A stretch of DNA of 33,204 nt, from NCBI GenBank assembly GCA_029561145.1, contig JAKQJM010000094.1:1-33204 (forward strand). Direction: 5' to 3'. The notes under the pieces are model-generated. The model had not been told where the DNA came from. It saw only the letters and a program-made list of their open reading frames with translations, and searched no databases. Shown piece by piece: positions 5,448 through 21,341 of this stretch. The DNA comes from Pseudomonadota bacterium (GTDB taxonomy: Bacteria > Pseudomonadota > Gammaproteobacteria > Xanthomonadales > Rhodanobacteraceae). Made by a program: the position numbers and the translations under genes. Position 1 is the stretch's first letter, and each line of letters opens with the position of its first letter.

Positions 5448-7628
5448 ATGAAAAAGCCATTTTTCAATCAAGTAGAACGAATCCATGGCAGATCCTATTT
5501 CACAGTTCGAATCGCACCCCTGTTGTTGGCTATCGCGACGTCGTCGGGATTTTTGCCGACAGCGTCAGCAACCAGCTTGGCCCCCATAGGCGAATTCGTT
5601 CCTGGCTACATGACGAGCACGCGCACCAAGGACATGCCGACCGCCGATTTCGACGGCGATGGACTACCCGATGTCATCATCGTCGGTAGTAAGAGCTACA
5701 GCGACCTTATACAGGTTGCAGGATTCCAATCGGGTCAGGGATGGAAGGTAAAGCAGCTGATCATCCCGTCGCCGGGATCCTATCTCTACGGCACGACGAA
5801 CCTCGCGGCATGGCAGGCAACAGACGGCCCGCATCTGCTTTACATACGAGGCGACCTGACCAGCGAATACTCGGGATGGCCACTCACGCTGGTCCGCCAG
5901 TTGCAACTTCCCGGTTCGCCCGAATTCAGCGATGTCCAGGTGGCCGATGTCGACAACAACGGCACCTTTGAACTCCTTGCAGCCTCGAGCTATGCGCAGG
6001 GCATTCGAGCAATATCTCTTGTTACGGGAGGGACGCTCTGGGAGACCAGCGATCCCAATGGCTACAACACCACCTTGCATGTCGCCCAGCTCGATGCCGA
6101 TCCGGCCCTTGAGATCATCGTTAGCGGAATGCCTGGAAGGGTCATCGATGGCGCCACGCATGCCATCGAGTGGCAATACAAGGATGGGTTTGGCCCTTTG
6201 ATCGAGCACGGCCGGTTTGGGGGTTCGTCGCCGCGTTTCGCTTCCTTGAGTGATCGTATCCTCATGTTCCAGTCCCAGCCCTGGTCGCCTCTATGGGACG
6301 CGAATGAATACTATGTGAGCGCATCGACCGTGGTCGACGCAGACGGCGACAACATTGACGAACTGGTCTGCAACACGAACTCATTTCCTGGAGGGATCAG
6401 GGTGTTCGACGTTCAGACGCAGACCACTCGCTCATCGTTCGCCGGCAGTGACGCATGGCAGATTGCCGCGACCGATTTCGACGGCGATCCTCAAAAGGAA
6501 ATTGCGCTCGGCCTAACGGTCGATAGTTTTGCGTCCTCGGGCAGCAGTTTCCGCGTCATCAACGCCACCAGCGGCACCAGTGAATTCGAGATTCCGGCCA
6601 CGGCGCCGGGACCCTATCTCGTCGGTGGTTTCATCCAGGACGGAGCGACTGTCGACACAGTATTCGGATCGGGAGGCGAGTCCCGATACGCGGGTGTGTT
6701 TGCACGCGCTGATTCGATTACCGGCGCTGTCCGGTGGCAAACGGCAGCGAACGATTCATTACTCGATATGAGTCAGGTCAACAATATCCTGATTGCAAAT
6801 CTGGCCGGTTACGCCCATCCGACGATCCTTGCTTCCGGAAGCGGACTGTATTCCTACCAGAAACGCATCGTAGCGCTGGATGCGGACGACGGCAGCGTGC
6901 TCTGGCATATTGACAGTGAAAACAGCGCGTTGCCTCAGTACGCCGCGATCAATGCCGTGACAGCCGTCGATACGAATGGAGATTCCACGGCAGATGCAGT
7001 CCTTGCGTGCACTTCGGAGCCACGCCTGCGCCTGTTCGATGCGGCCACCCGCGCGCAGATCTGGGCATCGGTCACGATGTCGGACAATTGTGGCGGTGCG
7101 ATGCAATTGACCAGCGGCGGAAACAAGCAACTTGTCGCAGTCCTTTCGGAGGCGCTACGTGCCTACGATGCACAAACGCATCTGTTGAGCTGGAGCCTGC
7201 CGTTCCCTTCGGGGATCTTCGGTGCAAGCTACCTTGAGCATGGCGCTGCAGGTGCCGAGTTGGCCGTGTTCTCCGAGCATGGAATCACCTTCTTCGATGT
7301 CGAGACACGTAACCAATTGCGTGAGCTCGTTCTGCCGGATCTCTATCCGATTCAGGCCGTCGCACAGGCTGCCGGCGTTTCGATTCGTGATCTGGTCGTC
7401 GCAGGCAATGGCAAACTCGTCGTCCTCGATGGCATCACCGGCGCAGTGAAGGCGACTTCCGCTGCGCTCGGGCTGAATGCCGGATTGAACAACCAGGTGG
7501 CATTGCGCGCCAATTCGGACGGCTCCGTCCTCGTCGGCCTGGGCAGCGATGTAGCGGTCTTCAGCCATCGTCTCGATGGGTTATCCGACGAAATCTTTAC
7601 CGACGGATTCGACCCAGGCATGCCGTGA
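5448..7628 (+). CDS. Secreted FG-GAP/VCBS repeat protein with IF-x-DGF tail
   Basis: This 726-residue secreted protein is probably a beta-propeller. The N-terminus has a basic segment and then a hydrophobic signal (TVRIAPLLLAIATSSGFLPTASA). Calcium-binding-like FG-GAP loops recur through the chain: DFDGDGLPDVIIVG, DVDNNGTFELLAAS, DADGDNIDELVCN, DFDGDPQKEIALGL and DTNGDSTADAVLAC. Such propellers mediate surface binding or adhesion in other proteins; no catalytic domain is visible. It ends in DEIFTDGFDPGMP, a tail shared with other secreted proteins here. The start ATG has GGAG upstream (5434-5437), and a GTG 36 bases earlier would only add a poor leader. Codon choice looks less GC-biased than in neighbouring genes. 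Exact role unknown. Confidence 0.85.
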   Translation: MKKPFFNQVERIHGRSYFTVRIAPLLLAIATSSGFLPTASATSLAPIGEFVPGYMTSTRTKDMPTADFDGDGLPDVIIVGSKSYSDLIQVAGFQSGQGWKVKQLIIPSPGSYLYGTTNLAAWQATDGPHLLYIRGDLTSEYSGWPLTLVRQLQLPGSPEFSDVQVADVDNNGTFELLAASSYAQGIRAISLVTGGTLWETSDPNGYNTTLHVAQLDADPALEIIVSGMPGRVIDGATHAIEWQYKDGFGPLIEHGRFGGSSPRFASLSDRILMFQSQPWSPLWDANEYYVSASTVVDADGDNIDELVCNTNSFPGGIRVFDVQTQTTRSSFAGSDAWQIAATDFDGDPQKEIALGLTVDSFASSGSSFRVINATSGTSEFEIPATAPGPYLVGGFIQDGATVDTVFGSGGESRYAGVFARADSITGAVRWQTAANDSLLDMSQVNNILIANLAGYAHPTILASGSGLYSYQKRIVALDADDGSVLWHIDSENSALPQYAAINAVTAVDTNGDSTADAVLACTSEPRLRLFDAATRAQIWASVTMSDNCGGAMQLTSGGNKQLVAVLSEALRAYDAQTHLLSWSLPFPSGIFGASYLEHGAAGAELAVFSEHGITFFDVETRNQLRELVLPDLYPIQAVAQAAGVSIRDLVVAGNGKLVVLDGITGAVKATSAALGLNAGLNNQVALRANSDGSVLVGLGSDVAVFSHRLDGLSDEIFTDGFDPGMP

Positions 7629-7644
7629 GAGATTTTCCGTCTGG

Positions 7645-7670
7645 TCGGCTTGCGCGATCACGCAAGCCGA
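7645..7670 (+). terminator. Strong hairpin after the FG-GAP gene
   Basis: TCGGCTTGCG and CGCAAGCCGA form a perfect 10-bp stem around the six-base loop CGATCA, beginning 16 bases after the stop codon. No T-run follows, so it may be a weak intrinsic terminator or an mRNA 3'-end stabiliser rather than a canonical terminator. Confidence 0.5.
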
Positions 7671-7771
7671 AACATGCGTGCCTGCTCCGCTCGCATTGAG
7701 TCGTTCATCATCTTTCCCTTCCTCTGATCGCCGCAACAGGCTCTAATGACCCCAATGTATCGGGAGCCTGC

Positions 7772-8719
7772 ATGAAGCCGCTCAACATCGTCATCCTTGG
7801 TGGCACCGGCTTTGTCGGCAGTCACCTCGTTCCCCGCCTACATGCGGACGGACATCGCATCCGCGTGCTTTCGCGCAACCGTGAGCTGCGCCGCGAGCTC
7901 GGCGTCCTGCCGCGCGTGAAGGTCGAGAACGTTGATGTGCATGATCGCGCCCGCTTGACCCGCGCCCTGCACGGGGCCGATGCCGTGATCAACCTGGTCG
8001 GCATCCTCAACGAGCGCGGCTCGGATGGCAGTGGCTTCGAGAAAGCCCATGTCGCTTTGACCGAGACCGTGATCACCGCTTGCACGAGCGCGCGCGTGCC
8101 GCGACTGTTGCAGATGAGTGCGCTGCGTGCGGGCGAGGGTGCCAGCCACTATCTGCGCACGCGCTTCGATGCCGATACACGCGTGCGCGACTCGCGGCTT
8201 GCCTGGACGATCTTCCGGCCATCGCTGATCTTCGGTCGTGGCGATGGGTTGTTCTTCCGCTTCGCCGGGCTGCTGCGCATCGCGCCGGTGCTGCCATTGG
8301 CGCGAGCGGACGCACGGTTTGCGCCGGTCCATGTCGGCGATGTCGCCGAGGCGTTCGCACGCGCGCTCGCACACCCGCACTCGATCGGCCATACCTATGA
8401 ACTGTTCGGCCCGCGCGTGATCAGCTTGCGCGAGATCGTGCGCTGGACCGCAAGCCTGATCGGCAAGCCGCGCTGGATCATCGATCTGCCCGATCCGCTC
8501 GGTTACCTGCAGGCGATGCTCGGCGAGTGGTTGCCGGGCAAGCCGATCTCACGCGACAACTTCCGTTCGCTGCAGGTCGATTCCGTGGGCGACAAGGACG
8601 GCCTCGGTGAACTCGGCATCGTCGCCATGCCGATGGAACTGATCGTGCCTGCGCTGCTCGGCAGCGATGTCCAGCAGAGTCGCCTTGACGCGTTTCGCGA
8701 AGCGCAGCGCCCGGACTGA
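7772..8719 (+). CDS. NAD(P)-binding epimerase-like protein (complex I NDUFA9 family)
   Basis: The 315-residue protein has a Rossmann fold of the extended/atypical short-chain dehydrogenase type. The dinucleotide-binding motif VILGGTGFVGSHLVPRL is at residues 7-23, followed by INLVGILNE near residue 72. The classic YxxxK catalytic pair is not evident (the corresponding region reads SALRAGEGASHYLRTR), as in the NDUFA9-like/atypical branch. The second half (TIFRPSLIFGRGDGLFFRFA) is typical of that branch. It may bind NAD(P)H as a structural or quinone-related protein rather than act as an epimerase. GGGAG lies seven bases before the ATG. It is 39 bases upstream of cca on the same strand; the two functions are not obviously linked. 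Confidence 0.85.
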   Translation: MKPLNIVILGGTGFVGSHLVPRLHADGHRIRVLSRNRELRRELGVLPRVKVENVDVHDRARLTRALHGADAVINLVGILNERGSDGSGFEKAHVALTETVITACTSARVPRLLQMSALRAGEGASHYLRTRFDADTRVRDSRLAWTIFRPSLIFGRGDGLFFRFAGLLRIAPVLPLARADARFAPVHVGDVAEAFARALAHPHSIGHTYELFGPRVISLREIVRWTASLIGKPRWIIDLPDPLGYLQAMLGEWLPGKPISRDNFRSLQVDSVGDKDGLGELGIVAMPMELIVPALLGSDVQQSRLDAFREAQRPD

Positions 8720-8746
8720 CAGCGGGATCGACCGCGCCCGCTCTGG

Positions 8747-8752
8747 CACAAT
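8747..8752 (+). promoter_or_regulatory. Putative -10 hexamer CACAAT immediately before the cca start
   Basis: CACAAT ends six bases before the cca ATG, and no Shine-Dalgarno sequence lies between. The arrangement matches the one in front of slt and suggests a leaderless transcript. This is inference only. Confidence 0.35.
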
Positions 8753-8758
8753 CGCCGC

Positions 8759-9997
8759 ATGAAGATCTATCGGGTTGGCGGCGCCGTCCGCGACAAGCTG
8801 CTCGGCAGGACGTCCAGCGACATCGATCGCGTCGTGGTCGGCGCCACGCCAGCGCAAATGCTCGATGCAGGCTATCGCCCGGTCGGCAAGGATTTTCCTG
8901 TCTTCCTGCATCCGCGCACGAACGAGGAATATGCGCTGGCGCGCACCGAGCGCAAGACCGCGCCGGGATACCACGGCTTTGCCTTCAATGCCGATCCCTC
9001 GGTGACGCTGGAGGAGGACCTCGAACGCCGCGACCTGACCATCAACGCGATCGCCGAGGACGACGCTGGCCATCTGGTTGATCCTTACGGTGGCGCCCGC
9101 GACATCGAGGCGCGCGTGCTGCGCCATGTCTCGCCGGCCTTTGCCGAGGATCCGGTGCGCGTCCTGCGTGTCGCGCGTTTCCTCGCGCGATTCGCCTCAT
9201 ACGGCTTTTCGATCGCCGACGAGACGATGGCCCTGATGCGCGACATGGTCGGTGCGGGTGAAGTCGATCATCTCGTCGCCGAGCGGGTCTGGGCCGAGAC
9301 GCGCAAGGCCCTTGCCGAACCATCGCCGTCGGCGTTCCTGCAGGTTCTGCGGGGCTGTGGCGCGCTGCGCGTCCTGTTTCCGGAAATCGATGCGCTGTAC
9401 GGCGTGCCGCAGCGCGCCGAGTTCCATCCCGAGATCGATGCCGGCGTGCACAACGAGATGGTCGTCGACATGGCAGCGCGCCTCGCCCCCGGCGACGACC
9501 TGATCGGCTTTTGCGCGATGACGCATGATCTCGGCAAGGCGCTGACGCCCGCCCAGGAATGGCCGCGGCACATCATGCACGAGGAACGCGGCGTGGCACC
9601 GCTGCGCGCGATGGCCGAACGCCTGCGCGTTCCGGCCGAACATGCCGAGTTGGCCGTGCTCTGCTGTCGCCTGCACTTGCTGGCCCATCGCGCTTTCGAA
9701 CTGCGCCCGGAAACCCTGCTCGGCGTGATCGAGAAACTCGATGCCTTGCGCAAGCCGCAGCGACTCGAGCAGTTCATCACGGTCTGCGAAGCCGACAAGC
9801 GCGGGCGTCTTGGACTCTCCGAATCGGACTACCCGCAAGGCGATCTGTTGCGCAGCGCCTACCAGCTCGCGATCGGGATCAAGGCCTCACCCTTCGTCGA
9901 GCAGGGCCTGCAAGGACCGGCGATTGCCGACGCGATGCGCAAGGCACGCATCACCGCGATCGCGGAGTTGAAACTCGCGAAAGGACATCGGGACTGA
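8759..9997 (+). CDS. cca: CCA tRNA nucleotidyltransferase with HD domain
   Basis: This enzyme adds or repairs the 3'-CCA end of tRNAs using CTP and ATP without a nucleic acid template. The 412-residue length matches the gammaproteobacterial multifunctional form. The class II nucleotidyltransferase head is at the N-terminus ([14 protein letters not shown], then SDIDRVVVG with the catalytic acidic pair). The [12 protein letters not shown] motif and [18 protein letters not shown] follow at about residues 90-125, and the nucleotide-selecting region includes [18 protein letters not shown]-terminal HD phosphohydrolase domain ([20 protein letters not shown], then [11 protein letters not shown]) is the part linked to phosphatase and 2',3'-phosphodiesterase activities in E. 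coli. The start is preceded by a -10-like CACAAT rather than a ribosome-binding site. Very secure assignment. Confidence 0.97.
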
Positions 9998-11484: not shown

Positions 11485-12570
11485 TTCGCGACCGAGATAG
11501 TCCTCGCTCTGCATTTCGATCAGGCGCGATTCGGTGCGTGCGAAAACCGCGCGATGGCGATGACCGTCGTAGAGATCGATGATCGGCACGGCCGCCGAGA
11601 GCACGAGTTTTACCGCGTGATCATACAATTCGTCGACGAGTTCGACGAAGCGTTGCGCCGCGTCTTCGGTCTGCGGCGTGAATTCGGGCACGCCCGAAAT
11701 CAGCACGGTATGGTACGAACGGGCAAGGAAGATGTAGTCGGCGACACCGCGCGGACCTTCGCAGATCGCATCGAAGTCGAACCAGATCGCGCCATCGCCC
11801 GCGCGCATCACGCGGACCGGACGCTCGTTGATCGAAAGACTGAAATCGGAACGCTCGCGCCCGCGCGCGACTCGCCGGAAGATCGCCAGCATCGCGCGCT
11901 CGGCGCGCGCGTCGGGCGGAGTCAGATAGACCGGCGCCTGTTTGAGCGCGCGCAGGCGCCAGTCGGTCGGCGAAACCAGTTCGGCGATCTCGCAATGCGC
12001 TTCGAGCAAGCCGATCGCAGGCAGGAACCGTTCACGCTGCAGGCCATTCCTGTACAGGTCCACTGGCGCGGTGTTCGAGGTCGTCACCAGCGTCACGCCG
12101 CGCGCGAACAAGGCCTTGAGCAGGTTGCCGAGGATCATCGCATCGCCGATATCGAGCACGAAGAACTCGTCGAGACAAAGCACGCGCGCCTTCGCGGCGA
12201 TGCGCTCGGCGACCGTGACCAATGGGTCGCTGCGTCCACCCAGCGTGCGCAGTTCGGCATGGATGTCCTGCATGAAGCGATGGAAGTGCACGCGCATCTT
12301 CTCCTCGATCGGCAACGACTCGAAGAACAGGTCCATCAGGAAGGTCTTGCCACGACCAACGCTGCCCCACAGGTAGAGGCCCTGCGGTGCCTCGCGCGGC
12401 TGTCCGCGCACGCGCTGCCACAGGCTCGGTCGAGCGCTGCCGGCCTGCAGCGCATCGAAAATGCGATCGAATGCAGCCAGCGCGGTTTGCTGGGCCGGGT
12501 CGGCCTGCCAGCTCCCGTCGGCCACGCCTTGCGCGTAGCGCGCGCCAGGACGCAACGCCGCGGAGGTCAT
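11473..12570 (-). CDS. zapE: Cell division protein ZapE (AFG1-like ATPase)
   Basis: The 365-residue AFG1-family P-loop ATPase is known in E. coli to associate with the division machinery and alter Z-ring stability under stress or low oxygen. Walker A is LWGSVGRGKTFLMD at about residue 70, and Walker B is VLCLDEFFVLDIGDA with a sensor-like TLVTTSNTAP after it. The family signature around HFHRFMQDIHAEL is present. The ATG at 12570 overlaps the stop of the upstream hydrolase gene (ATGA), which fixes the start and implies translational coupling. The final residues (REHRG) lie in a palindromic repeat, so the extreme C-terminus may be recently altered. Family assignment is strong. Confidence 0.95.
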   Translation of the reverse strand: MTSAALRPGARYAQGVADGSWQADPAQQTALAAFDRIFDALQAGSARPSLWQRVRGQPREAPQGLYLWGSVGRGKTFLMDLFFESLPIEEKMRVHFHRFMQDIHAELRTLGGRSDPLVTVAERIAAKARVLCLDEFFVLDIGDAMILGNLLKALFARGVTLVTTSNTAPVDLYRNGLQRERFLPAIGLLEAHCEIAELVSPTDWRLRALKQAPVYLTPPDARAERAMLAIFRRVARGRERSDFSLSINERPVRVMRAGDGAIWFDFDAICEGPRGVADYIFLARSYHTVLISGVPEFTPQTEDAAQRFVELVDELYDHAVKLVLSAAVPIIDLYDGHRHRAVFARTESRLIEMQSEDYLGREHRG

Positions 12571-13262
12571 GCGGGATCGTTCGACTTCGGCAGATGCATG
12601 CGCATGCCGTTCTTGATCGCGCCGCGCAGATCCATCAGGCGCCGATGAAAGAAGTGGCTGGTTTCCGGCATGCGTACCAGCTGTGGCGGTGCCGCGAGTT
12701 TCCCGACCCATTCGAAGACGCCTTCGGGGTCGACCACTTCATCCTCCTCGCCCTGGACGACCAGCCACGGACAGTCCGGCAGATCGATCGCAGCGAAGTC
12801 CCAGCGACCGACCGGCGGAGCGATCGTGATCAAGGCAGCCGCATCGAGTCGTTTTGCGTTGCGCAGCGCGACGTAGCTGCCAAACGAGAATCCTGCCAAC
12901 CAGAGTGCAGCGCCCGGGCGGACCGCGCGTGCCCATTCGACGACAGCGGCAAGGTCCTCGCTTTCACCGTCGCCTTCGTCGAAGCTGCCCTCGGATTTTC
13001 CGATGCCGCGAAAGTTGAAGCGCACGGTATCGAGGCCGAGTTCGCGCAGTGATCGCTCGATGATCGTCACCACCTTGTTGTGCATGGTGCCGCCGTGCAG
13101 GGGATGCGGATGGCAGATCACCGCGATACCGGCGTTCGCGTCCGCGCCACTGTCTGCCGGCTCCGTGGCCGCTTCGATGGCACCTGCCGGCCCCTGCAGC
13201 AGGAAGCTTGCCGACTCCGCCGGAAATGCCTGCGGTGCGGACTTGTCTGGAATCTTGCTCAT
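12567..13262 (-). CDS. Alpha/beta hydrolase
   Basis: The 231-residue cytoplasmic serine hydrolase resembles the dienelactone-hydrolase/YcjY-like group. Visible features are VICHPHPLHGGTMHNKVV near residue 45, FNFRGIGKSEGSFDEGDGE (oxyanion loop), nucleophile elbow LAGFSFGSYVAL, acid region VVQGEEDEVVDPEGVF and catalytic histidine in PETSHFFHRRL. It is upstream of and coupled to zapE through an ATGA overlap. The start at 13262 is chosen because TATCAT (13270-13275) would be a -10 element seven bases upstream, giving a leaderless message. An alternative ATG at 13271 has AAGG upstream and would add three residues. It is divergent from acpH with only 44 bases between. Substrate unknown. Confidence 0.88.
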   Translation of the reverse strand: MSKIPDKSAPQAFPAESASFLLQGPAGAIEAATEPADSGADANAGIAVICHPHPLHGGTMHNKVVTIIERSLRELGLDTVRFNFRGIGKSEGSFDEGDGESEDLAAVVEWARAVRPGAALWLAGFSFGSYVALRNAKRLDAAALITIAPPVGRWDFAAIDLPDCPWLVVQGEEDEVVDPEGVFEWVGKLAAPPQLVRMPETSHFFHRRLMDLRGAIKNGMRMHLPKSNDPA

Positions 13263-13269
13263 GGCGACC

Positions 13270-13275
13270 ATGATA
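13270..13275 (-). promoter_or_regulatory. Putative -10 hexamer TATCAT before the alpha/beta hydrolase start
   Basis: On the minus strand TATCAT is followed by seven bases and then the ATG at 13262. The same layout precedes slt, cca and the ECF sigma gene. The element overlaps the alternative ATG at 13271, which argues for the shorter protein. Inference only. Confidence 0.4.
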
Positions 13276-13306: not shown

Positions 13307-13897
13307 ATGAACCACCTCGCCCACGCGCTGCTTTCCGGCCCCGACGACGCGTTTCGGATCGGCGGCATGATGGGCGACTTCGTGCGCGGCGCAATCGACC
13401 CGGCACTTCCGCCCGGCATACAGCAGGGAATCGCGTTGCATCGCGCGATCGATTCGTTCACGGACAACCACGACGACATCCGCGCCGCACGTGCCGCGTT
13501 CGATCCGCCATTCCGACGCTACGCCGGCATCTTCATCGATATCTGGTTCGATCATTTGCTGGCCCGCAATTTCACGCTCTGGTCCGAAATGCCGCTGCAA
13601 CGATTCAGCGACGACATCGTGCTCCTGCTGCAGGACCACGATGCCTTGCTGCCCGATTCACTGCGCCGTTTCCGTCGCTATCTGCATGCGCACGATCTGC
13701 CGGCGGCGTACGCGGATCGCGGCATGATAGGCGAGGTCCTGCGCGGCGTCGGTTCGCGGCTCAGGCGGGACAATCCACTCGCGCAGGGCCTGCCCGAACT
13801 CGAACGCCTCGAGCCCGTGCTCATGGCCAGCTTCGGGCGTTTTTTTCCGCAGCTGGTTGGCTACGCATCGACGTGGCGCACATCGAATCTGCGCTGA
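13307..13897 (+). CDS. acpH: Acyl carrier protein phosphodiesterase (AcpH/DUF479)
   Basis: This enzyme removes the 4'-phosphopantetheine arm from holo-ACP. The 196-residue length matches E. coli AcpH (about 193). The hallmark N-terminus MNHLAHALLSGPDDAFRIGG, MMGDFVRG and GIALHRAIDSFTDNHDD carry the His/Asp residues expected for the HD-like metal site. SRLRRDNPLAQGLPELERLE is typical of the C-terminal helices. The gene is divergent from the alpha/beta hydrolase and its ATG is far too close to that gene for a long leader. Assignment is by family motifs; activity is not demonstrated here. Confidence 0.93.
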   Translation: MNHLAHALLSGPDDAFRIGGMMGDFVRGAIDPALPPGIQQGIALHRAIDSFTDNHDDIRAARAAFDPPFRRYAGIFIDIWFDHLLARNFTLWSEMPLQRFSDDIVLLLQDHDALLPDSLRRFRRYLHAHDLPAAYADRGMIGEVLRGVGSRLRRDNPLAQGLPELERLEPVLMASFGRFFPQLVGYASTWRTSNLR

Positions 13898-13950
13898 GCA
13901 TCGCGAAACGCAGTGGCCTGCGCTCGACCGCTGCAGCGGCTTCGTATCCG

Positions 13951-13967
13951 ATCGGCGTTGCGCCGAT
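13951..13967. terminator. Hairpin between acpH and glnA
   Basis: ATCGGCG and CGCCGAT pair perfectly over 7 bp around TTG. It lies 54 bases after the acpH stop between convergent genes. There is no U-run, so termination activity is uncertain. Confidence 0.35.
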
Positions 13968-13977
13968 GCCAGACAGC

Positions 13978-13996
13978 CATCGCCCGTGAACGGGCT
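13978..13996 (-). repeat. TTCA-loop hairpin repeat, copy D
   Basis: Read on the minus strand it is AGCCCGTTCACGGGCGATG, with a perfect 5-bp stem GCCCG/CGGGC around TTCA. The stem bases differ from copies B and C but still pair. Confidence 0.6.
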
Positions 13997-14024
13997 CCTG
14001 GCGGACACGACAAGCCGCCGTGTT

Positions 14025-14043
14025 AGCGCCTTCAGGCGCAATG
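14025..14043 (+). repeat. TTCA-loop hairpin repeat, copy C
   Basis: AGCGCCTTCAGGCGCAATG has a perfect 5-bp stem GCGCC/GGCGC around TTCA. It lies 29 bases from copy D in the opposite orientation. Confidence 0.6.
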
Positions 14044-14218
14044 CTTTCGGCAGCCGGAGGTCAAAGTGCGTCGACACCGGTCACCGTGGTGCCGGAGACC
14101 CCGGCTTGCGCCAGGGCTTCGCGGACTTCATCGCGCTCGAACGGCCGAGCGATGGCAGCGATCGGTTCGATGGCGACTCCGAGGCCGGATCGATCCGCTG
14201 CCACGTCCCGGCTCTTGA

Positions 14219-15628
14219 TCAGATCGAGTAGTACATCTGGTATTCCAGCGGATGGGTGGCCGCGCGGAAGCGCGTGACCTCGGCCATCTTCAGTTCGATG
14301 TAGCCATCGATGAAATCGTCCGAGAACACGCCGTCGGCCTTGAGGAAATCCCTGTCCTTGTCGAGCGCAGCCAGCGCCTGGTCGAGGCTCGAACATACCT
14401 GCGGAATGTTCTTTTCCTCTTCGGGAGGAAGGTCGTAGAGATCCTTGTCCGAGGGCGCGCCGGGATCGATCCGGTTGAGGATACCGTCGATGCCCGCCAT
14501 CAGCAGCGCCGAGAAAGCGAGGTAGCCCGAGTTCATCGGATCCGGGAAACGGATCTCGATGCGACGCGCCTTCGGGTTCGTCACGAACGGAATGCGGCAG
14601 CTGGCCGAGCGGTTGCGCGCCGAATAGGCCAGCATGACCGGAGCCTCGAATCCCGGCACGAGGCGCTTGTAGCTGTTCGTCGTCGAATTGGTGAACGCGT
14701 TGATCGCGCGTGCATGCTTGAAGATGCCGCCGATGTACCAGAGCGCGGTTTGCGACAAGCCCGCGTAGAGATCGCCGGCGAACAGGTTGACGCCGCCCTT
14801 GGACAGCGACTGGTGCACGTGCATGCCCGAACCGTTGTCGCCAACCAGCGGCTTCGGCATGAAGGTCGCGGTCTTGCCGTTGCGATGGGCGACGTTCTTG
14901 ACCACGTACTTGAGCGCCAGCAGCTCATCGGCCTTCTTGACCAGCGAATTGAACTGCACGCCGATCTCGCACTGGCCGGCGTTGGCGACTTCGTGATGAT
15001 GCACTTCAACGGTCTGGCCGAGCGCACCCAGCACGTTGCACATTTCCGCGCGCAGATCCTGCAGGGAATCGACCGGCGGCACCGGGAAATAGCCGCCCTT
15101 GACGACCGGGCGATGTCCGCTGTTGCCTTCTTCGTAGCGCTTCGACGAAGACCACGCGGCTTCCCCGGATTCGACCTCGAAGAACACCTTGCCCATGTCA
15201 TTCTGCCAGCGCACCGAATCGAACACGAAGAACTCGGGCTCGGGACCGAAGAAAGCCGTATCGGCAATGCCCGTGGATTTCAGGTAGGCCTCGGCGCGCC
15301 GTGCCAGCGAACGCGGATCGCGCGAATAGGCCTGCATCGTGTTCGGCTCAAGCACATCGCAGTAGAGGATCACGGTCGGATCGGCGAAAAACGGATCGAC
15401 CAGCGCGGTGTCCGGATCGGGCATCAGGACCATGTCCGATTCGTTGATCCCCTTCCAGCCCGAGATCGACGAGCCATCGAACATCTTGCCGTCCTCGAAA
15501 GTCGACTCGTTGATCGAAGCGGCCGGAAAGGTGATGTGCTGCTGGACGCCGCACAGGTCGGTGAAACGGAAATCGACGTAGGTGATGTTCCGATCCTTGA
15601 TCAGCTTGAGCACATTTGCAGCGGACAT
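14219..15628 (-). CDS. glnA: Glutamine synthetase, type I
   Basis: This enzyme makes glutamine from glutamate, ammonia and ATP and is central to nitrogen assimilation. At 469 residues it has the normal GSI length. Visible motifs are [20 protein letters not shown] at the N-terminus, [30 protein letters not shown] (metal site), [28 protein letters not shown] and NRSASCRIP. Tyr398 in [11 protein letters not shown] matches the adenylylation site, indicating the GlnE-regulated GSI-beta type. The ATG at 15628 follows GAGG; an upstream in-frame extension would cross the sigma-54 promoter and is rejected. Transcription is probably sigma-54/NtrC dependent (see upstream sites). No glnK, amtB or ntrBC is adjacent. 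Confidence 0.98.
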
Positions 15629-15663
15629 GGAAACCTCGGCTAGAGTGATTGTGGCTGACTCAC

Positions 15664-15679
15664 TGCAACCCTCATGCCA
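15664..15679 (-). promoter_or_regulatory. Sigma-54 (-24/-12) promoter of glnA
   Basis: On the minus strand TGGCATGAGGGTTGCA fits the consensus TGGCAYR-N4-TTGCW at every defined position, with correct GG-to-GC spacing. The GC of the -12 element is at 15665-15666, predicting a start near 15653 and a leader of about 25 bases ahead of the glnA ATG. Confidence 0.85.
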
Positions 15680-15751
15680 GATCTGCTGCGTCGCAAAACA
15701 CATGTAAATTCAACGAATTATGCGATATTCGCAGTCAGCATCCTTGCGCTC

Positions 15752-15770
15752 ATGCACCTTCTAGGTGCAT
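15752..15770. promoter_or_regulatory. NtrC-type enhancer site 1
   Basis: ATGCACC-TTCTA-GGTGCAT is a perfect inverted repeat matching the NtrC core TGCACC-N5-GGTGCA. Its centre is 108 bases upstream of the predicted sigma-54 start, the same position as a main NtrC site of E. coli glnAp2. Confidence 0.8.
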
Positions 15771-15783
15771 TTTTCCGTTACGT

Positions 15784-15800
15784 TTCACCAAGTTGGCTCC
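15784..15800. promoter_or_regulatory. Possible second, weaker NtrC site
   Basis: TTCACC-AAGTT-GGCTCC retains 8 of 12 NtrC consensus positions. Its centre is 31 bases (about three helical turns) beyond site 1, near -139, matching the paired-site spacing known at E. coli glnA. Confidence 0.45.
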
Positions 15801-15941
15801 ATGAAGGAACACGCAAACCGTGCCATCTTGAAAGCGATGCAGCGCTGTGGCGATCAGCGGCAAAAGCAGGCGTTGCCTTTCTGGCAACTTCAATGCACAG
15901 GTGGCTTGGCAGCGCGCGCGGTGCCGAGGTCGACGCGGGAT

Positions 15942-16220
15942 TCAGATCGACGTTCTGTTCACCGTGGCCAGGCGATTGGCCTGAATGACTGCCGCACGAA
16001 GCGAGCACGTGTTTTCACTGGTGTGGCAAACGCCATCGGCGATGTTGTCGTCGATCAGGTCGGCGGCGGTCGTGACACGGTAAATGATCGTCGTCGGTGG
16101 GTTTTGCGCGATGGTGCTTGCGGATATCAGAAGGGACCCGATCCCCATGACAACCGCGATTGTCCTGCCACGGACGCGGATGCGGTTCGTGGCTGCACCG
16201 CAAATCCGGGCGCGGATCAT
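15942..16220 (-). pseudogene. Truncated CSLREA-type secreted beta-helix protein (N-terminal fragment)
   Basis: The 92-residue reading frame starts with a signal peptide (hydrophobic core TIAVVMGIGSLLISAST, cleavage near IAQ). It continues into IIYRVTTAADLIDDNIADGV and CHTSENTCSLRAAVIQANRL, the recognisable CSLREA-type N-terminus of long right-handed beta-helix proteins. It then stops after NRTSI, where several hundred residues of beta-helix would be expected. No continuation was found in other frames toward glnA; the +1 frame runs on for some 60 residues without beta-helix character. Its ATG overlaps the stop of the upstream beta-helix gene (ATGA). Most likely a decayed gene; a short secreted protein cannot be excluded. 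Confidence 0.65.
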
Positions 16221-17923
16221 GGATCGAACCCGTTGCGGAAGATCAGGTCAGCGGACGAAACCACCGAGCGGCAGTTCGAGAACTCCGAAACGATGAAGGC
16301 CGAGGGACCGGGCGTCGCCGCGGAGCGGCGTGTCAGTGCGGTGAGGACCAGCCCTGCACCGAGCCCTGTCGACTGCCGCGTGAAGCTGGCATTGCCCGAC
16401 GCATCGGTCGTCACGTTGACGACGCTCGGCGGCGGATTGATCGGGAAGAATGATTGCCCGCCGCCGAAACCGCTCGCGTCGCAACTGCTGCTTACATAGA
16501 AATGGATTTCATAGCTGCTGTTGGGCGCCGCATTCAATGTTCCCGTGATTGTCGTGGAGGACAGGGAAGGATCGAAGATCACTGAGTGCAGGTCGGGTTT
16601 GTTGAGCAGTTCGTTCGGTCCACTGTCGCTATCGCCGTTGTCGTTGGGCGTCACCCCGATCGGGGCCAGATCGATTGCAGGACCGCCGTTGCCTCCGATC
16701 GAAGCATTGACGTCCACCTGCGCCAGGTCGCCAACGAAGAGTCCGGCGCCGGCGTTGTGCGAGATGCTCGCCGTGCCGAAGGCGGCGAAGCGGTAACGCA
16801 CACCGACGAATGCACCGGTCGTGTTTCCCGCGACGAGTACTCCATTTCCACCGTTGCCGATTGGCAAGCCGCCGACACCGATGCCGATCCCGTTCCCGAT
16901 CACCGTGGTCCCCGCAGTCGGGCTGTCGAATATCGCGACGCCATCGCCCAGATTGGCCGAGATCAGGTTGTCGTGGATCGCGATGTTGGTACTGTTGAGA
17001 TCAACCGTGATGCCTCTGCCGGCATTCGGCAGTGCGGTCGTTCCGCTGGCTGAAAGGCCGATGATGTTGTTGCGGATGCGATGGCTTTCGGCCCGCGCAT
17101 CGGCACGTGTCGATCCGATATGGATACCGTCGCCGCCAGCAGCCGAAATCAGGTTGCGGGTCTGTGCGAGCGGGGGGTTTGGACCGCCCAACTGCACGAT
17201 CTCGTCGCCGACGATGTTGCTCGTGCTGCCGCGCCCGAACACCAGATTGGCACGACCCAGGGCCACGCCATTTGCCCGGGCCAGCATGCCCGAGGCATCG
17301 GTACCGAAAAAGTTGCCCTGGATGCGCACGCCGCCGACCGGACAAAATCCGTTGCCCGGGCAGGACTCCTCGCCCATCGACACCGCGGCGCCAGCGAACC
17401 GGTTTATGACGAGGCCGCTGATCACACTGGTATTGCCGGAACACAACGGCGATGCCGGAATCGATGCGCCGATCACGATGGCGTCCGCGGCGCCGGCCAG
17501 GCTGCCATCCAGTTCGATCGTGATGACGGCATTGCTGCCTTCAGCAAGCGTGTTCAGGCTGGAACCCGCTTGCGTGTAACCGTCGAGCGTGATCGGGATG
17601 TTGAACACGGGCAGCGGCGAAAGCGGCTGGATCGTGTGCAGCCCCGTGCCGGGGATCGCAAATACGATGGAGTGCGGAGCACACCGGGTACTGCCGGTGA
17701 CCTGTTGCGCGTTCGCATCGACGATGGCCTGGCGCAGGCTTCCGAGGCCTGAATCGGCGGAGTTGGTGACGGTATAGATGTTCGCCCATGCGTCGCTGGC
17801 CAGCACGAGACCCAGCGAAAATGCGGCGCGTGCGAGAAGACGCACTGCGAGCGCGGAGACAGCCTCCTGCCTGCATGGCGTTGGCCGCAGCGGCATGCGG
17901 TGGGATCGGAACGGAATCCTCAT
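16217..17923 (-). CDS. Secreted right-handed beta-helix protein with IF-x-NGF tail
   Basis: This 568-residue exported protein is likely surface-located or secreted. A long signal region (LLARAAFSLGLVLASDAWA) is followed by IYTVTNSADSGLGSLRQAI, the typical entry into a parallel beta-helix. Repeated short strands with Asn/Gly turns (IQGNFFGTDASG, HRIRNNIIGLSASG, IAIHDNLISANLGDGVAIF, VIGNGIGIG) form the helix up to about residue 420. A beta-sandwich-like C-terminal region then precedes the tail DLIFRNGFDP. No polysaccharide-lyase catalytic residues could be assigned, so adhesin or glycan-binding roles are as likely as enzymatic ones. GGAGG is ten bases upstream of the ATG. It is a related, intact neighbour of the truncated fragment that follows it. 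Confidence 0.85.
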   Translation of the reverse strand: MRIPFRSHRMPLRPTPCRQEAVSALAVRLLARAAFSLGLVLASDAWANIYTVTNSADSGLGSLRQAIVDANAQQVTGSTRCAPHSIVFAIPGTGLHTIQPLSPLPVFNIPITLDGYTQAGSSLNTLAEGSNAVITIELDGSLAGAADAIVIGASIPASPLCSGNTSVISGLVINRFAGAAVSMGEESCPGNGFCPVGGVRIQGNFFGTDASGMLARANGVALGRANLVFGRGSTSNIVGDEIVQLGGPNPPLAQTRNLISAAGGDGIHIGSTRADARAESHRIRNNIIGLSASGTTALPNAGRGITVDLNSTNIAIHDNLISANLGDGVAIFDSPTAGTTVIGNGIGIGVGGLPIGNGGNGVLVAGNTTGAFVGVRYRFAAFGTASISHNAGAGLFVGDLAQVDVNASIGGNGGPAIDLAPIGVTPNDNGDSDSGPNELLNKPDLHSVIFDPSLSSTTITGTLNAAPNSSYEIHFYVSSSCDASGFGGGQSFFPINPPPSVVNVTTDASGNASFTRQSTGLGAGLVLTALTRRSAATPGPSAFIVSEFSNCRSVVSSADLIFRNGFDP

Positions 17924-18238
17924 ACGCCGGCTTCCTCCGCAACGCGAGCGGAAAGCGGTTCCGTGATGCCTGGAGAATTGACCATCTGCTGTTCCCTTGC
18001 GAGTTGTGCTTCAGAGTCCGTTCCTGGTGTCGACGGATGTTCGGGTGGCTGCACCGTGTGCTCCACATGCAGAACAGCAAGCGGCGCCGAATCCGGCCAG
18101 GCGTACCGTTCCGTTCACCATCGAGCCCGCAAAAGCTCGCCGATGCGAGGCAGGAGCAGCGATGCTGCTGCATCGACGCACAGGCACAAGAGCCCGGATC
18201 GGTCGCCACCCTTTTTCCGCGTTGCCTGACCGTCGCGA
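17924..18238. other. Intergenic region without recognised features
   Basis: This 315-bp gap lies between the membrane-protein gene and the beta-helix gene, both on minus. It should contain the beta-helix promoter. No convincing promoter, terminator with a U-run, or small gene was seen; the open frames crossing it lack protein-like character. Confidence 0.4.
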
Positions 18239-18958
18239 TCAGCGGATCAGCCATGTCGCGATCGACAGCCACGCGTCGGTGCGCATGACCAGCAAGCGAC
18301 CGATCTGGGAGAGCATCAGCAGGCCGATACCCCACAGAAAGGCAGGGTGGATCCTGCCGTAGCGGAGCTTGTCGACGATCAGGCACGGCACGAAGAAGAG
18401 ATCGGTCAGCAACAAGCCGAGGGGCGGCGCGGCGGCGCCAAAGCCGGAATGCAACAGCATGCGCGCGATCGCTGGCGTGAGGATGCCGATCGTGGCAACC
18501 AGCATGAGCCGCTTGTGGAAATCGCTGCGCCGGCGCAAGTGGATCGCGGTGCCGACCGTCGCTGCAAAAACCAGGATCGTGGTCAGCGGAATGGCGAGGA
18601 AACGCACCGCATCGACGCCTGGCGGTGCATGCCCGATCCGGGCCGCCGTGACCGCGGTCATGACACCGACCACGAGCAGGGCCAAAGCCAGCATGGCGCC
18701 GACTATGCCGAGTCGGCGATGGAGGGCCTTGTTTCCGTGGGCGATGAGCAAGGTCTGGGTCAGGAACAGCAGCATCCACGCGCTGAACAGGATCCCGTGC
18801 AAATGCACAAGCGGTGTCGCCGGAGGGCCTCCGAAGGCTGGGCGCAGGTAGAACGTCGGCGCGAAGCCGACGAACACCGTCAGCAGCATCACCAAGGCCA
18901 TGCCGGCATGGAAATAGCGATCAGAGGGCAGGCGGACCGATCCGGCGTCTACAGACAC
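18239..18958 (-). CDS. Polytopic inner-membrane protein (DUF2306-like)
   Basis: The 239-residue protein has about seven hydrophobic helices, for example ALVMLLTVFVGFAPTFYL, LFSAWMLLFLTQTLLIA, LGIVGAMLALALLVVGVMTAV and FLAIPLTTILVFAATVGTAIH. Conserved-looking histidines lie in LVHLHGILFSAW and NKALHRRLG, with FHKRLMLVATIGILTPAIAR further on. This arrangement resembles DUF2306-type putative membrane cytochrome-like or transport proteins; heme binding by the paired histidines is speculative. The GTG start is supported by GGAG seven bases upstream. Function unknown. Confidence 0.8.
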   Translation of the reverse strand: MSVDAGSVRLPSDRYFHAGMALVMLLTVFVGFAPTFYLRPAFGGPPATPLVHLHGILFSAWMLLFLTQTLLIAHGNKALHRRLGIVGAMLALALLVVGVMTAVTAARIGHAPPGVDAVRFLAIPLTTILVFAATVGTAIHLRRRSDFHKRLMLVATIGILTPAIARMLLHSGFGAAAPPLGLLLTDLFFVPCLIVDKLRYGRIHPAFLWGIGLLMLSQIGRLLVMRTDAWLSIATWLIR

Positions 18959-19121
18959 GTGATATCTCCAGCGAAAACAGCGGGCAAGGGCGTGCAGGCT
19001 TTAGAACAGCGAAAGGCGCGCGAAGCGGCCATGGATCGGGAAAATATGCCGCCCCGTGAGAGGGAATTCGCACGTCCCTGTTCGATCGATGCCTGGCTGC
19101 GGCAGGTCGCACCGTTCGCCT

Positions 19122-19139
19122 CGCTGCCTGCAGGCAGCG
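19122..19139. repeat. 18-bp perfect palindrome downstream of the esterase-GH5 gene
   Basis: CGCTGCCTGCAGGCAGCG is a perfect 18-base palindrome about 95 bases past the stop of the esterase-GH5 gene. It lacks both a loop and a T-run. It could be a regulator site or part of a 3'-end structure. The rest of the 275-bp gap (18959-19233) shows nothing else. Confidence 0.4.
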
Positions 19140-19233
19140 CGCGGGTCAGCGTGGACGCGCCCTTGCCCAGGGCTTCGCGGCGCGCCCCGCACGGATCCGA
19201 TCAGCGCGTACACCGCTCGCGCAGCAAGGCCCG

Positions 19234-21219
19234 TCAGAAATCGTTCTCGATCATGTCCATGTTCACGGTATCGCCCGTGTAGGTGGCCGGACTGGTCGGC
19301 GAGATCGAGAAGTGGCCGCCACCATTCGCGGCAACGTCGGGCCACCACAGCGGATCGCCGCCGGCGAACCAGGTGAATCCGAGGAACACGCCGGCAGCGG
19401 CATTGGCGTCGACCCAGGCAATGAAATCGGCCCAGGCCTGTGGCGCATTGTTTGCGCCCGCATACATCCCGATCTCGCCTAGGTAGACCTTGTAGCCGTG
19501 CGCGGCAGCTTCGTTGACGGCGACCGCGACGTGATCGCGAGCCGCCGTGATCGAGGTGATCTCGGTCGTGCCGCCACCCTGGTCGGTGTCGAGATAGGTA
19601 TGCACTTCGGCAGCCATGTTGGCGACGGGATCGTTGAGCGGCTGGCCGATCCCGTTCGCATTGAGCCATCCATACGCATTCGATCGCTTTGTCGCGGCGG
19701 TGTCGTAGAAATTCGAGGTCCAAGTGCTCGCCGCGCTGTAGCCATTGCCCGGCACGTGGATGCGCTGCGTCGACCCGGTGCTGCGGATCGCGTTGATGGC
19801 GGCCTGCGCGGCGCTGAACCAGGCCATCGTCGACATGTCGTTCGGTTCGTTGATCAGTCCATAGTCGACCCGCACGTTGCCGCCGAAGATCGTCGCCATG
19901 CGCGACCAGAAATCGGCGAAGGCCGAATTCGGTACCGATGCGGAGCCGACCACGTTGCCGCGGTAGCGGGCTCCGCCGGCACCGCCTGCCGTATTGGAAT
20001 CCCACGGCTCGACGACCACGCGCAGGCCCTTGACGTTGGTCGCGTAGTCGACGATGCGCTTGTAGTTGTCGAAGTAGGTCTTGTAGCGACCGGTCTGGGA
20101 AGCCGGAATCGGTCCGTTGAGGACCTGCTGCATGCACTCCCACGAGAACAGGAAGCGCAGTGTCGTCATGTGCTTGGATGCGAAGTAGTCGATCAGGCGT
20201 TCGTCATGACGCGGATATTGGGTTCCCTCGATCGGTCCACCGGCCTGGTCGCAGTTCTGATACGCCATCTCCATGCCGGCGACATTGGTTCCGCGGATTT
20301 GCGCGGAACCCGCCGGATCGAAGTCATCTGCGAAGATCGGATCCGGCAGTCCGGCCGGTGCCGATGCATCGATGAACTGCCAGAGCGCGGATGCCGCCTG
20401 CGCCCAGATCGAATGCCCCATCCCGGGAATCGCGCACCAGTCGAGCTCGCGCGCGCAGCCGTTGTACGACACGCACGGCGACACCAGGCTCGGGCTGGTC
20501 GCGCCTGCACAGCCCTGGGTGGCGGCATAGTTGTCACGCACGCCGAGGCCTTCGGCAAACGAAACATTCGGGGTATTGTCGAGTTCGCCCCAGATCAAGG
20601 CAGCGGCCGGCAAGGCGCATGAAACACCGCCATTGCCTGTATAGGTGAAATCCGCCACGCCCATGCCATTGTTGACCGGATACAGCGTTCCGGAATGGAT
20701 GCCGAGCCCGCGAATCACCGCTGGGCCCAAACGGCAACCGAGCGCATTGGCCATCGTCGCGCCGCCACTGAAGCCGATGACGAATACGCGCGTCGTATCG
20801 ATGCCGAACTCTGCATTCATCGCGGCGATCACGTCGGTGACGAAGACCGCCTCGCGCGAACGACCGTCATAGGTGTAGTACTCGAACGTGCCGCCAGGCG
20901 CATTCGGATAAATGAAGACAGCACCGCTCGTCGCCTGCCCTTCGAGCGGCAATGCGCCACGCATCGCGGCGCCATTGCCGCCATCCCCGTGCAGCGAGAA
21001 CACCAGCGGCAGCGCACTGCCGACCGGGGTCGTCGTCGGCCGGGCGAGCACGAAGCTGCGCGAGATTCCGCTCGAGACGATGCTGCGGTTCTCGGAGGCG
21101 TAGGCTGCGGATGCGCCGACGCTCCAGAGGCAGGCAAGGACCAGCCATGCGGCCCTGCCTCGCCCAAGCAGCGCACGCAACGGTCCTTTCCGCGGGCCCA
21201 GCGAAGAATTCACGTTCAT
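19234..21219 (-). CDS. Secreted two-domain hydrolase: PHB-depolymerase-like esterase + GH5 cellulase
   Basis: The 661-residue exported protein joins two enzymes. After a signal peptide (about residues 1-41) comes an esterase domain of the PHB-depolymerase/feruloyl-esterase type (about 45-290): LVFSLHGDGGNGAAMRG, GFSGG with nucleophile Ser151, GELDN with likely Asp214, and GMGHSIW with His269. The second domain (about 306-661) is a GH5 endoglucanase-like barrel, with acid/base Glu458 in GLINEPND and nucleophile Glu582 in YLGEIG. The junction, residues 293-302, reads DPIFADDFDP, the same motif that ends other secreted proteins here. Such a pair could de-esterify and cut plant polysaccharide. 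The ATG overlaps the stop of a possible 41-residue gene, and AGGAG lies nine bases upstream. Confidence 0.88.
   Translation of the reverse strand: MNVNSSLGPRKGPLRALLGRGRAAWLVLACLWSVGASAAYASENRSIVSSGISRSFVLARPTTTPVGSALPLVFSLHGDGGNGAAMRGALPLEGQATSGAVFIYPNAPGGTFEYYTYDGRSREAVFVTDVIAAMNAEFGIDTTRVFVIGFSGGATMANALGCRLGPAVIRGLGIHSGTLYPVNNGMGVADFTYTGNGGVSCALPAAALIWGELDNTPNVSFAEGLGVRDNYAATQGCAGATSPSLVSPCVSYNGCARELDWCAIPGMGHSIWAQAASALWQFIDASAPAGLPDPIFADDFDPAGSAQIRGTNVAGMEMAYQNCDQAGGPIEGTQYPRHDERLIDYFASKHMTTLRFLFSWECMQQVLNGPIPASQTGRYKTYFDNYKRIVDYATNVKGLRVVVEPWDSNTAGGAGGARYRGNVVGSASVPNSAFADFWSRMATIFGGNVRVDYGLINEPNDMSTMAWFSAAQAAINAIRSTGSTQRIHVPGNGYSAASTWTSNFYDTAATKRSNAYGWLNANGIGQPLNDPVANMAAEVHTYLDTDQGGGTTEITSITAARDHVAVAVNEAAAHGYKVYLGEIGMYAGANNAPQAWADFIAWVDANAAAGVFLGFTWFAGGDPLWWPDVAANGGGHFSISPTSPATYTGDTVNMDMIENDF
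20314..20343 (-). other. Internal IF-x-DDF motif at the esterase-GH5 junction
   Basis: These ten codons (DPIFADDFDP, residues 293-302) match the C-terminal tails of neighbouring secreted proteins, but here sit between two catalytic domains. Confidence 0.6.
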
Positions 21220-21341
21220 TCAAAATCGCTCCTGAAGATCGAATCGCCTGTGTCGAGCGACGCGTATGCCGCCGGCACTGCGCCGGCTGCGCAGCGGACC
21301 GTGCCCCGAGCGACGCACCGGCTTTCGAGTTCTGCGTGCAT
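21216..21341 (-). CDS. Possible 41-residue protein ending in the IF-x-SDF tail
   Basis: This short frame has an ATG with AAGGA eight bases upstream. It ends ASLDTGDSIFRSDFE, then TGA overlapping the ATG of the esterase-GH5 gene (ATGA). The tail matches the motif that ends the FG-GAP and beta-helix proteins. No signal peptide is visible; the body (ESRCVARGTVRCAAGAVPAA) is unrecognised. It may be a real small gene coupled to the next one, a leader peptide, or the surviving 3' end of a larger secreted-protein gene. The AGGAG that serves the downstream gene lies within the tail codons, which could also explain part of the similarity by chance. Confidence 0.4.
   Translation of the reverse strand: MHAELESRCVARGTVRCAAGAVPAAYASLDTGDSIFRSDFE

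What the first reader, a model, noticed from the sequence alone, without database searches (positions are those of the whole stretch)
5448..21341. Shared IF-x-[DNS]-[GD]-F-[DE] tail on several exported proteins
DEIFTDGFDP (7587-7616), DLIFRNGFDP (16220-16249) and DSIFRSDFE (21219-21245) end three unrelated reading frames, and DPIFADDFDP occurs inside a fourth. The first two proteins have signal peptides and share no fold (FG-GAP propeller and beta-helix), so the short tail is not explained by common ancestry of the whole chain. It could be a sorting, secretion or anchoring signal, analogous in concept to other C-terminal sorting motifs.
Basis: partly seen in the sequence, partly recalled or inferred. 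Interest (0 to 1): 0.75.

Follow-up and report, generated by a model that had tools for sequence, protein, structure and literature searches.

The report
C-terminal export tag tied to T2SS
Dozens of unrelated exported proteins in this bacterium and its relatives end in the same nine-residue tail, and the genomes rich in it all keep one particular type II secretion machine, which suggests that the tail may be an address label for that machine.

Summary
Two of its three window 'tails' are genuine protein ends (7587-7616, 16220-16249); the internal copy (20314-20343) is genuine too; the third (21219-21245) is the ribosome-binding site of the next gene. The Dokdonella-like genome has 51 strict matches against 0 for the reversed pattern. 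Of 80 loose matches, 57 end open reading frames within 14 residues of the stop, mostly on signal-peptide proteins of unrelated folds. The tail is order-wide but patchy: 0 to 136 matches per genome. Of 121 genomes, all 33 with six or more matches hold a second type II secretion lineage (T2SS-A; one only after its GspE was found), and 0 of 51 without it reach six. Three genomes nested in the tail-bearing clade lack both. Rhombosortase does not fit. Best explanation: a short linear recruitment signal for T2SS-A cargo. Type II substrates are widely held to share no linear signal (PMC7949064), so this would be new and testable. Not shown: contact with T2SS-A, effect on secretion, fate of the tail. 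Against: ten T2SS-A genomes have no strict tails; five genomes without it keep one to five real ones.

The parts
5448..7628 (+). Exported FG-GAP/PQQ beta-propeller-like protein with signal peptide
   Evidence: Pfam PQQ_2 2.8e-13, FG-GAP_3 1.1e-10; signal peptide by heuristic
7587..7616 (+). C-terminal tail DEIFTDGFDP (4 residues follow the core)
16217..17923 (-). Exported right-handed beta-helix protein with signal peptide
   Evidence: Pfam Beta_helix 4.5e-6; heuristic signal peptide
16220..16249 (-). C-terminal tail DLIFRNGFDP
19234..21219 (-). Exported PHB-depolymerase-like esterase fused to GH5 cellulase
   Evidence: NF050058 2.9e-19 at 53-277 (69.6 bits, cut-off 150); Esterase_PHB 22.1 bits, cut-off 23, and Cellulase 7.2e-32 at 316-601
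20314..20343 (-). Internal tail DPIFADDFDP at the end of the esterase part, before GH5: probably a former C-terminus left by fusion (inference)
21219..21245 (-). NOT a tail: ribosome-binding site (AGGAG) and start of the 19234-21219 gene, reading DSIFRSDFE by coincidence

Best explanation
The nonapeptide D-x-I-F-x-x-[G/D]-F-[E/D] is a short linear targeting tag on proteins that reach the periplasm by Sec (or Tat) and are then recruited, folded, by one particular type II secretion lineage (T2SS-A, gspCDE(F) beside rho-trx-rhlB), as opposed to the Xps-type T2SS (T2SS-B) also present. It is normally appended to the C-terminus, but works as an exposed linear motif, so it is also found just behind signal peptides, between domains and inside one protease domain, and doubled in some genomes. 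Shown here: the tag, its position, its presence on unrelated proteins, its genome-level association with T2SS-A. Inferred: that T2SS-A reads it, most likely at the periplasmic GspC (PDZ) / GspD N-domain station, and that this decides secretion or surface display. Not known: whether the tag is cleaved or retained.
For: Own genome 51 strict hits, 0 reversed; 57 C-terminal tails; in the columns that the loose search left free, D in 49 of 57, I in 51 of 57, G (not D) in 50 of 57; the two F and the final acidic residue were imposed by the pattern. Signal peptides 42 of 51 against 67 of 132 control genes. Folds unrelated: S8, M28, M14, reprolysin, endonuclease I, DUF1501, beta-helix, FG-GAP and others; one carrier, DUF1501 L043, begins MTAIDRRDFLKGCGVAAIAGG, read by me as a Tat signal. 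Family sample, 97 genomes: 21 have 16-136 matches, 76 have 0-1; the high-scoring GspD class (545-589 bits) is in 19 of those 21, G079 has a fragment plus an 80%-identical GspE, G037 (85% complete) is unresolved; of the 76 only four genomes of genus g25 come close (527-542 bits). Order sample, 121 genomes: GspD-A in 69; six or more matches in 32 of 69 against 1 of 52, that one (G561) proving to have GspE-A beside a GspD-A fragment, so 33 of 70 against 0 of 51. Separate coincidences: G539 is the one genome of 18 in family f2 with GspD-A and the one with real C-terminal tails; G479 in tail-rich f189 has no match to the GspD-A or GspE-A query and no real tail; G008/G032/G061 sit inside the tail-bearing clade (100/100, and 99/99 with their two tailed genus mates) and have neither matches nor class-A GspD. 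DUF1501: tail, judged by eye, in 7 of 8 homologues from T2SS-A genomes, 1 of 22 from genomes without it. GspC-A has the T2SSC domain (1e-30) and a model of a close relative of it matches EpsC and PulC PDZ structures.
Against: Ten of 69 T2SS-A genomes have no strict match (f187 2 of 2, f190 6 of 18, G509, G532). g25 has a more distant A-like T2SS (GspD about 41% identical) and its loose-pattern hits are few and mostly unlike the tail; six f2 genomes with a GspD near 40% identity likewise have no match. So T2SS-A or its kin is not sufficient. Genomes without detected T2SS-A keep a few real C-terminal tails: G503 5, G516 4, G513 3, G544 2, G540 1; no GspE-A was recognised in them either, and only G503 (90%) and G513 (77%) could be excused by completeness. 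Tail genes are not enriched beside the gspCDE locus (6 against 4.9 expected in 34 loci, p 0.37). The Fisher tests are not corrected for phylogeny; independent changes number only a handful. Only gspC, D, E (and F in some genomes) of T2SS-A were located. Eighteen of the 22 A-minus DUF1501 homologues are distant (28-36% identity). No physical or functional evidence.
Confidence: 0.5

Rival explanations
1. Surface-retention tag: the proteins leave through T2SS-A (or also Xps) by other, structural signals, and the tail holds them on the cell surface or is attached to something by an unidentified enzyme or receptor that was lost together with T2SS-A.
For: Some carriers have NCBIfam choice-of-anchor domains, whose members elsewhere end in various sorting tags (that meaning of the name is recalled); T2SS substrates can be kept on the surface by a C-terminal tag, as GlyGly-CTERM (abstract of PMC13393428); same co-occurrence data.
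Against: The C-terminal tails end without a transmembrane stretch or basic cluster; internal and N-terminal copies do not suit C-terminal cleavage; rhombosortase over its cut-off is in 8 of 121 genomes, all among the 52 without GspD-A. No partner found, but exosortase and other sortases were not searched.
Confidence: 0.28
2. Assembly or matrix-binding peptide: the tail is an adhesive linear motif by which exported proteins bind each other, a pilus or a polysaccharide outside the cell; secretion is independent of it.
For: Linear motif tolerated at several positions, tandem copies in f189 genomes; hydrophobic I-F and F residues in an acidic frame.
Against: Carriers include enzymes and propellers of varied kinds; would not by itself predict joint absence with a secretion system in a nested clade.
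Confidence: 0.15
3. No function as a tag: the motif is a chance or fold-derived sequence, or a DNA element copied behind genes.
For: One window example is a coincidence (RBS); in other orders the pattern is background or housekeeping: all 8 hits fetched of the recurrent DxIFRSDF type lie inside one membrane-protein family.
Against: 51 against 0 reversed; synonymous variation; genomes of 64-65% and of 42-51% GC (stretches measured) share the peptide; orthologous proteases keep the tail while the residues before it vary.
Confidence: 0.02

Closest known systems
GlyGly-CTERM / rhombosortase (T2SS substrates such as VesB)
   Same: Short C-terminal tag on unrelated exported proteins of one genome, co-distributed with a machine, linked to type II secretion (abstract of PMC13393428)
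   Different: Known tag is tripartite (Gly/Ser motif, hydrophobic region, positively charged residues; abstract opening of PMC6219818 in the listing); this tail lacks the last two, may be internal, and no genome with GspD-A has a rhombosortase over cut-off (0 of 69)
MYXO-CTERM / myxosortase and PEP-CTERM / exosortase
   Same: Many tagged exported proteins per genome, sporadic C-terminal tag (abstract openings seen)
   Different: Those have a signature plus transmembrane helix and basic end (partly recalled); exosortase and myxosortase were not searched here
T9SS C-terminal domain (Bacteroidota)
   Same: C-terminal address for outer-membrane translocation (title and abstract opening of PMC4804311, listing)
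   Different: A folded beta-sandwich domain of a different secretion system; here 9 residues
PelI/Pel3 loop 3 signal read by OutC/OutD (T2SS)
   Different: That loop is described for one pair of homologous lyases, as one of several determinants; the same paper notes an apparent absence of common linear sequences among T2SS substrates

Membership tests
GlyGly-CTERM | Gly/Ser motif, then hydrophobic helix, then basic residues at the C-terminus | tested here: not met
   57 tails end 0-14 residues after the F-[E/D] core without hydrophobic helix and basic end; one carrier with an internal copy, L072, does end in a hydrophobic stretch and basic residues
GlyGly-CTERM | Rhombosortase in the same genome | tested here: not met
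   TIGR03902 over cut-off in 8 of 121 genomes, none of the 69 with GspD-A; own genome best 47.9 bits, cut-off 84
PEP-CTERM / MYXO-CTERM type tags | Signature, transmembrane segment, basic cluster | tested here: not met
   Same tail anatomy; their enzymes not searched
Type II secretion cargo | Sec or Tat signal for export to the periplasm | tested here: met
   42 of 51 scorable carriers by a crude heuristic that also scores 67 of 132 control genes; one carrier with a Tat-like start
Type II secretion cargo | Genome encodes the cognate T2SS | tested here: inconclusive
   gspC, gspD, gspE at L075:12309-17234; remaining T2SS-A genes of the own genome not located, cognate relation unproven
Type II secretion cargo | Secretion lost when the T2SS is removed | not testable with these tools
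   needs a mutant
T9SS cargo | Folded C-terminal domain and Por/Gld machinery | not tested
   tail is 9 residues; machinery not searched

The most novel reading that the evidence does not exclude
The tail is a general linear sorting code for type II secretion: one nonapeptide that marks dozens of unrelated folded cargoes for one of two coexisting T2SSs, kept or lost with it through evolution, and doubled in some lineages.
Probability: 0.4. Interest if true: 0.94.

Novelty: new variant of a known kind. Interest (0 to 1): 0.82.

Why it matters
How the type II secretion system picks its folded substrates is an old open question; the widely held view is that the determinants are structural, for want of a common linear sequence (PMC7949064, passages). 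A nine-residue motif that can be listed by pattern search in a genome, that tracks one T2SS lineage, and whose carriers include proteases, a nuclease and a polymer-degrading enzyme would turn the question into simple deletion and grafting experiments in environmental bacteria, would predict secretomes of this order, and could serve as a portable secretion tag.

Tried and rejected
Rejected: the third window tail (RBS of the next gene). Rejected: the recurrent DxIFRSDF hits in other orders as distant tails; all 8 fetched lie inside one membrane-protein family that I recognise from memory as CcmB-like. Rejected: physical linkage as evidence; tails are not enriched near gspCDE, although in single genomes a tailed or near-tailed gene adjoins gspC (L085 11301-13022 strict; L078 7593-9050 DLIFANDLE; L082 11926-13530 DIIFRYGHE).

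Led nowhere: a structure model of a tailed protease with four sequences was too poor to use (mean pLDDT 38.6). The first marker tree had rows that I judged to be in wrong reading frames and was replaced. Literature: the listed part of the searches (0 papers; 15 of 39; 15 of 43; 15 of 23; 12 of 5,904; 12 of 74; five spellings of the motif; 8 of 8) shows no paper on this motif by title and abstract opening. Papers: PMC7949064 and PMC12369372 seen as found passages, PMC13393428 as abstract and outline, the others in search listings only. NCBIfam: 62 carriers gave 73 families, of which only the first 25 were shown; none of those shown is a model of this tail by its description, and for the first carrier no match reaches the tail.

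Thresholds: GspD-A was called present at 45% identity or more over at least 55% of the query in one piece. Five f2 genomes whose match falls into two pieces (45-46% over the secretin half, 32% over the N-terminal half) and G514 (39%) were counted as lacking it. GspE-A was told from GspE-B by identity and by coverage of the first 60 residues, a judgement of mine. All Fisher p values ignore relatedness.

Full report
What is in the window. Two genes end in the tail: 5448-7628 (+), an exported FG-GAP/PQQ propeller, in DEIFTDGFDP-GMP, and 16217-17923 (-), an exported beta-helix protein, in DLIFRNGFDP. A third gene, 19234-21219 (-), has DPIFADDFDP between a PHB-depolymerase-like esterase part (matches below the curated cut-offs) and a GH5 cellulase domain, which looks like a former C-terminus overrun by a fusion (inference). 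The fourth case, 21219-21245, is the AGGAG ribosome-binding site plus start codon of that gene; the frame that reads DSIFRSDFE has no family match.

Genome-wide count. The strict DNA pattern for D-x-I-F-x-x-[GDE]-F-[DE] occurs 51 times in the own genome (3.6 Mb), the reversed pattern never; a looser one 80 times against 6. Of the 80, 60 lie within 14 codons of a stop; three were set aside (RBS artefact, a 10-codon frame, a divergent FFRVEFD), leaving 57 C-terminal tails, 46 of them with both D and I. The loose pattern imposes the two F and the last acidic residue; the columns it leaves free or half free show D in 49, I in 51 (L 4, V 2) and G in 50 (D 7) of 57; 19 end exactly at the acidic residue. 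A GFQ ending also exists (L076), so the patterns undercount. Synonymous codons vary. Of the 20 hits that are not near a stop I take six as real internal copies (below) and the rest as chance or ordinary matches.

Carriers. By a crude heuristic 42 of 51 scorable carriers have a signal peptide against 67 of 132 genes from the same stretches (p 9e-5; at a stricter cut 41 of 51 against 49 of 132, p 1.6e-7). The heuristic is loose, as the control rate shows. Of 62 carriers scanned (the window artefact and one near-duplicate left out, internal cases included) Pfam finds 45 families, none in more than six carriers: S8 6, InhA-like MAM 4, beta-helix 3, M28 2, reprolysin 2, with M14, endonuclease I, GH5, DUF1501, DUF1800 once each. 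NCBIfam finds choice-of-anchor Q in 9 and J in 4 (E up to 0.1). Six copies are not terminal: just after a signal peptide (L055; L067, read as the DUF1800 protein), near the start of an esterase-like protein (L058), inside a subtilase (L058), ahead of a hydrophobic, basic C-terminus (L072), and in the window fusion (the domain readings of these frames are mine). In f189 genomes tails can be doubled, e.g. DLIFEDGFDPFIDLIFIDGFE at an end. Four orthologous proteases keep D-x-IFA-x-GF while the residues just before it vary.

Distribution. Family sample: 27 of 97 genomes match; 21 have 16-136 matches, six have one, control zero throughout. Class sample: of the 364 genomes of other orders (of 369), 61 have one or two matches and none more, against 16 with one or two reversed matches; the excess is at least partly the DxIFRSDF segment of one membrane-protein family (8 hits fetched, all internal). 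Order sample of 121: f1 0-62, f183 25-45, f189 14-71 (one genome 1), f185 3-16, f191 9, f192 1-7, f186 3, f184 0-12, f190 0-6, f187 0, f188 mostly 0 (up to 7), f2 0 except G539 (5) and G543 (1, internal); reversed matches in two genomes, one each. The closest GspD-A of a named species is that of Dokdonella immobilis (91% identity); D. fugitiva has 71-72%. G059, placed in the own genus, has a contig of the same length, 333351, as the D. immobilis record, so I call the genome Dokdonella-like.

The co-occurring machine. GspD searched over the 97 genomes falls into two score classes: one up to 499 bits, and a high one, 545-589 bits in 19 of the 21 tail-rich genomes and 527-542 in four genomes of g25. 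Of the other two, G079 has a GspD fragment and a GspE 80% identical to the own one, G037 (85% complete, 770 contigs) remains open. g25 proteins are more distant (GspD about 41%, against 66-91% among tail-rich genomes), and g25 has 3 to 10 loose-pattern hits a genome against 0 to 4 reversed, few of which resemble the tail. The own T2SS-A locus is L075: gspC 12309-13271, gspD 13690-15744, gspE 15744-17234, beside rho-trx-rhlB; gspCDEF next to ftsEX recurs in several other families (one search was cut in the middle; the rho, trx, rhlB and ftsEX names are my reading of the sequences), which suggests an ancestral system lost several times. The other T2SS (L077) has the Xps-like order E...D (order recalled).

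Test over the order. GspD-A is present in 69 of 121; six or more matches in 32 of 69 against 1 of 52 (Fisher 5.6e-9, uncorrected). The single exception, G561, has GspE-A beside a GspD-A fragment, giving 33 of 70 against 0 of 51. In f2 the only genome of 18 with GspD-A (G539) is the only one with real tails, 4 of 5 hits C-terminal. In f189 G479 has no match to the GspD-A or GspE-A query and its one hit is internal. In the own family a tree of the other T2SS's GspD puts G008, G032 and G061 inside the tail-bearing clade (100/100; 99/99 with tailed G075 and G088); these three have neither matches nor class-A GspD. So the match is not one clade-wide accident, though the independent changes are few and the tree rests on one gene.

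Results against. Ten T2SS-A genomes have no strict match. Six f2 genomes with a GspD near 40% identity to the query, counted as lacking GspD-A, have none either. Five genomes without detected GspD-A or GspE-A hold real C-terminal tails: G503 5 of 5 hits, G513 3 of 3, G516 4 of 5, G544 2 of 3, G540 1 of 1; G503 and G513 are 90% and 77% complete, the other three 96-98%. Tails are not concentrated near gspCDE (6 seen, 4.9 expected).

Tail gain and loss on one family. DUF1501 homologues, 30 loci of 51 genomes searched: tail, judged by eye and with L for I in two, in 7 of 8 from T2SS-A genomes; among 22 from genomes without it, G516 has one, G544 ends in EIILKHGME (perhaps a decayed tail), 20 end without it. 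Eighteen of these 22 are only 28-36% identical to the query, so this is weak.

Mechanism. T2SS cargo folds in the periplasm after Sec or Tat export; GspC and GspD pick it up. In Dickeya a nine-residue exposed loop of PelI acts as a secretion signal and interacts with GspC and GspD (PMC7949064, passages); in Vibrio the EpsC PDZ domain is required for secretion of VesB (PMC12369372, passages). GspC-A has the T2SSC domain and a PDZ-like end (below Pfam's cut-off). A model of its Dokdonella relative (L149, 28 sequences, mean pLDDT 69) matches EpsC PDZ (2i4s, 2.6e-6), PulC PDZ (5hj1, 2.9e-5) and the GspC part of the E. coli GspC-GspD complex (3oss, 3.9e-4). That GspC or GspD reads the tail is inference; a g25 GspC, from a genome without tails, has a PDZ too.

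Judgement. That this is a selected, export-linked peptide tag I hold at about 0.95; that it is functionally tied to T2SS-A, as recruitment or retention signal, at about 0.75; that it is specifically the recruitment signal at 0.5.

Noticed in passing
window 21447-22043 (+) and 22055-24748 (-); L078 3339-6898; L085 13031-16628: ECF sigma factor (PF07638) with a Ser/Thr kinase-TPR protein beside tailed genes in the window and near gspCDE in two relatives; protein-kinase genes also lie near gspCDE in L082, L090, L091. Possible regulator of the tailed exoproteins.
   Followed up: partly
G504, G261, G544, G498, G510, G555, G552, G008: Rhombosortase over cut-off occurs in 8 of 121 genomes, all among the 52 without GspD-A (0 of 69 with it; Fisher 8e-4, uncorrected): one sorting system may stand in for the other.
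   Followed up: no
L244, L245, L248, L249: Tails in tandem pairs at protein ends in f189 genomes.
   Followed up: partly
L232-L239: DxIFRSDF[DE]DG is a conserved internal segment of a membrane-protein family (CcmB-like, recalled) in other orders and part of the background of the pattern there.
   Followed up: yes
window 5412-7628: Weak hit to TcdB_toxin_midN, below its cut-off; reads as a cross-match of FG-GAP repeats.
   Followed up: no
L034 (match at reverse-strand position 5001): IFSDGFD inside a multi-pass sugar-transferase-like membrane protein: an ordinary internal match, not a tail (the protein name is my reading).
   Followed up: no
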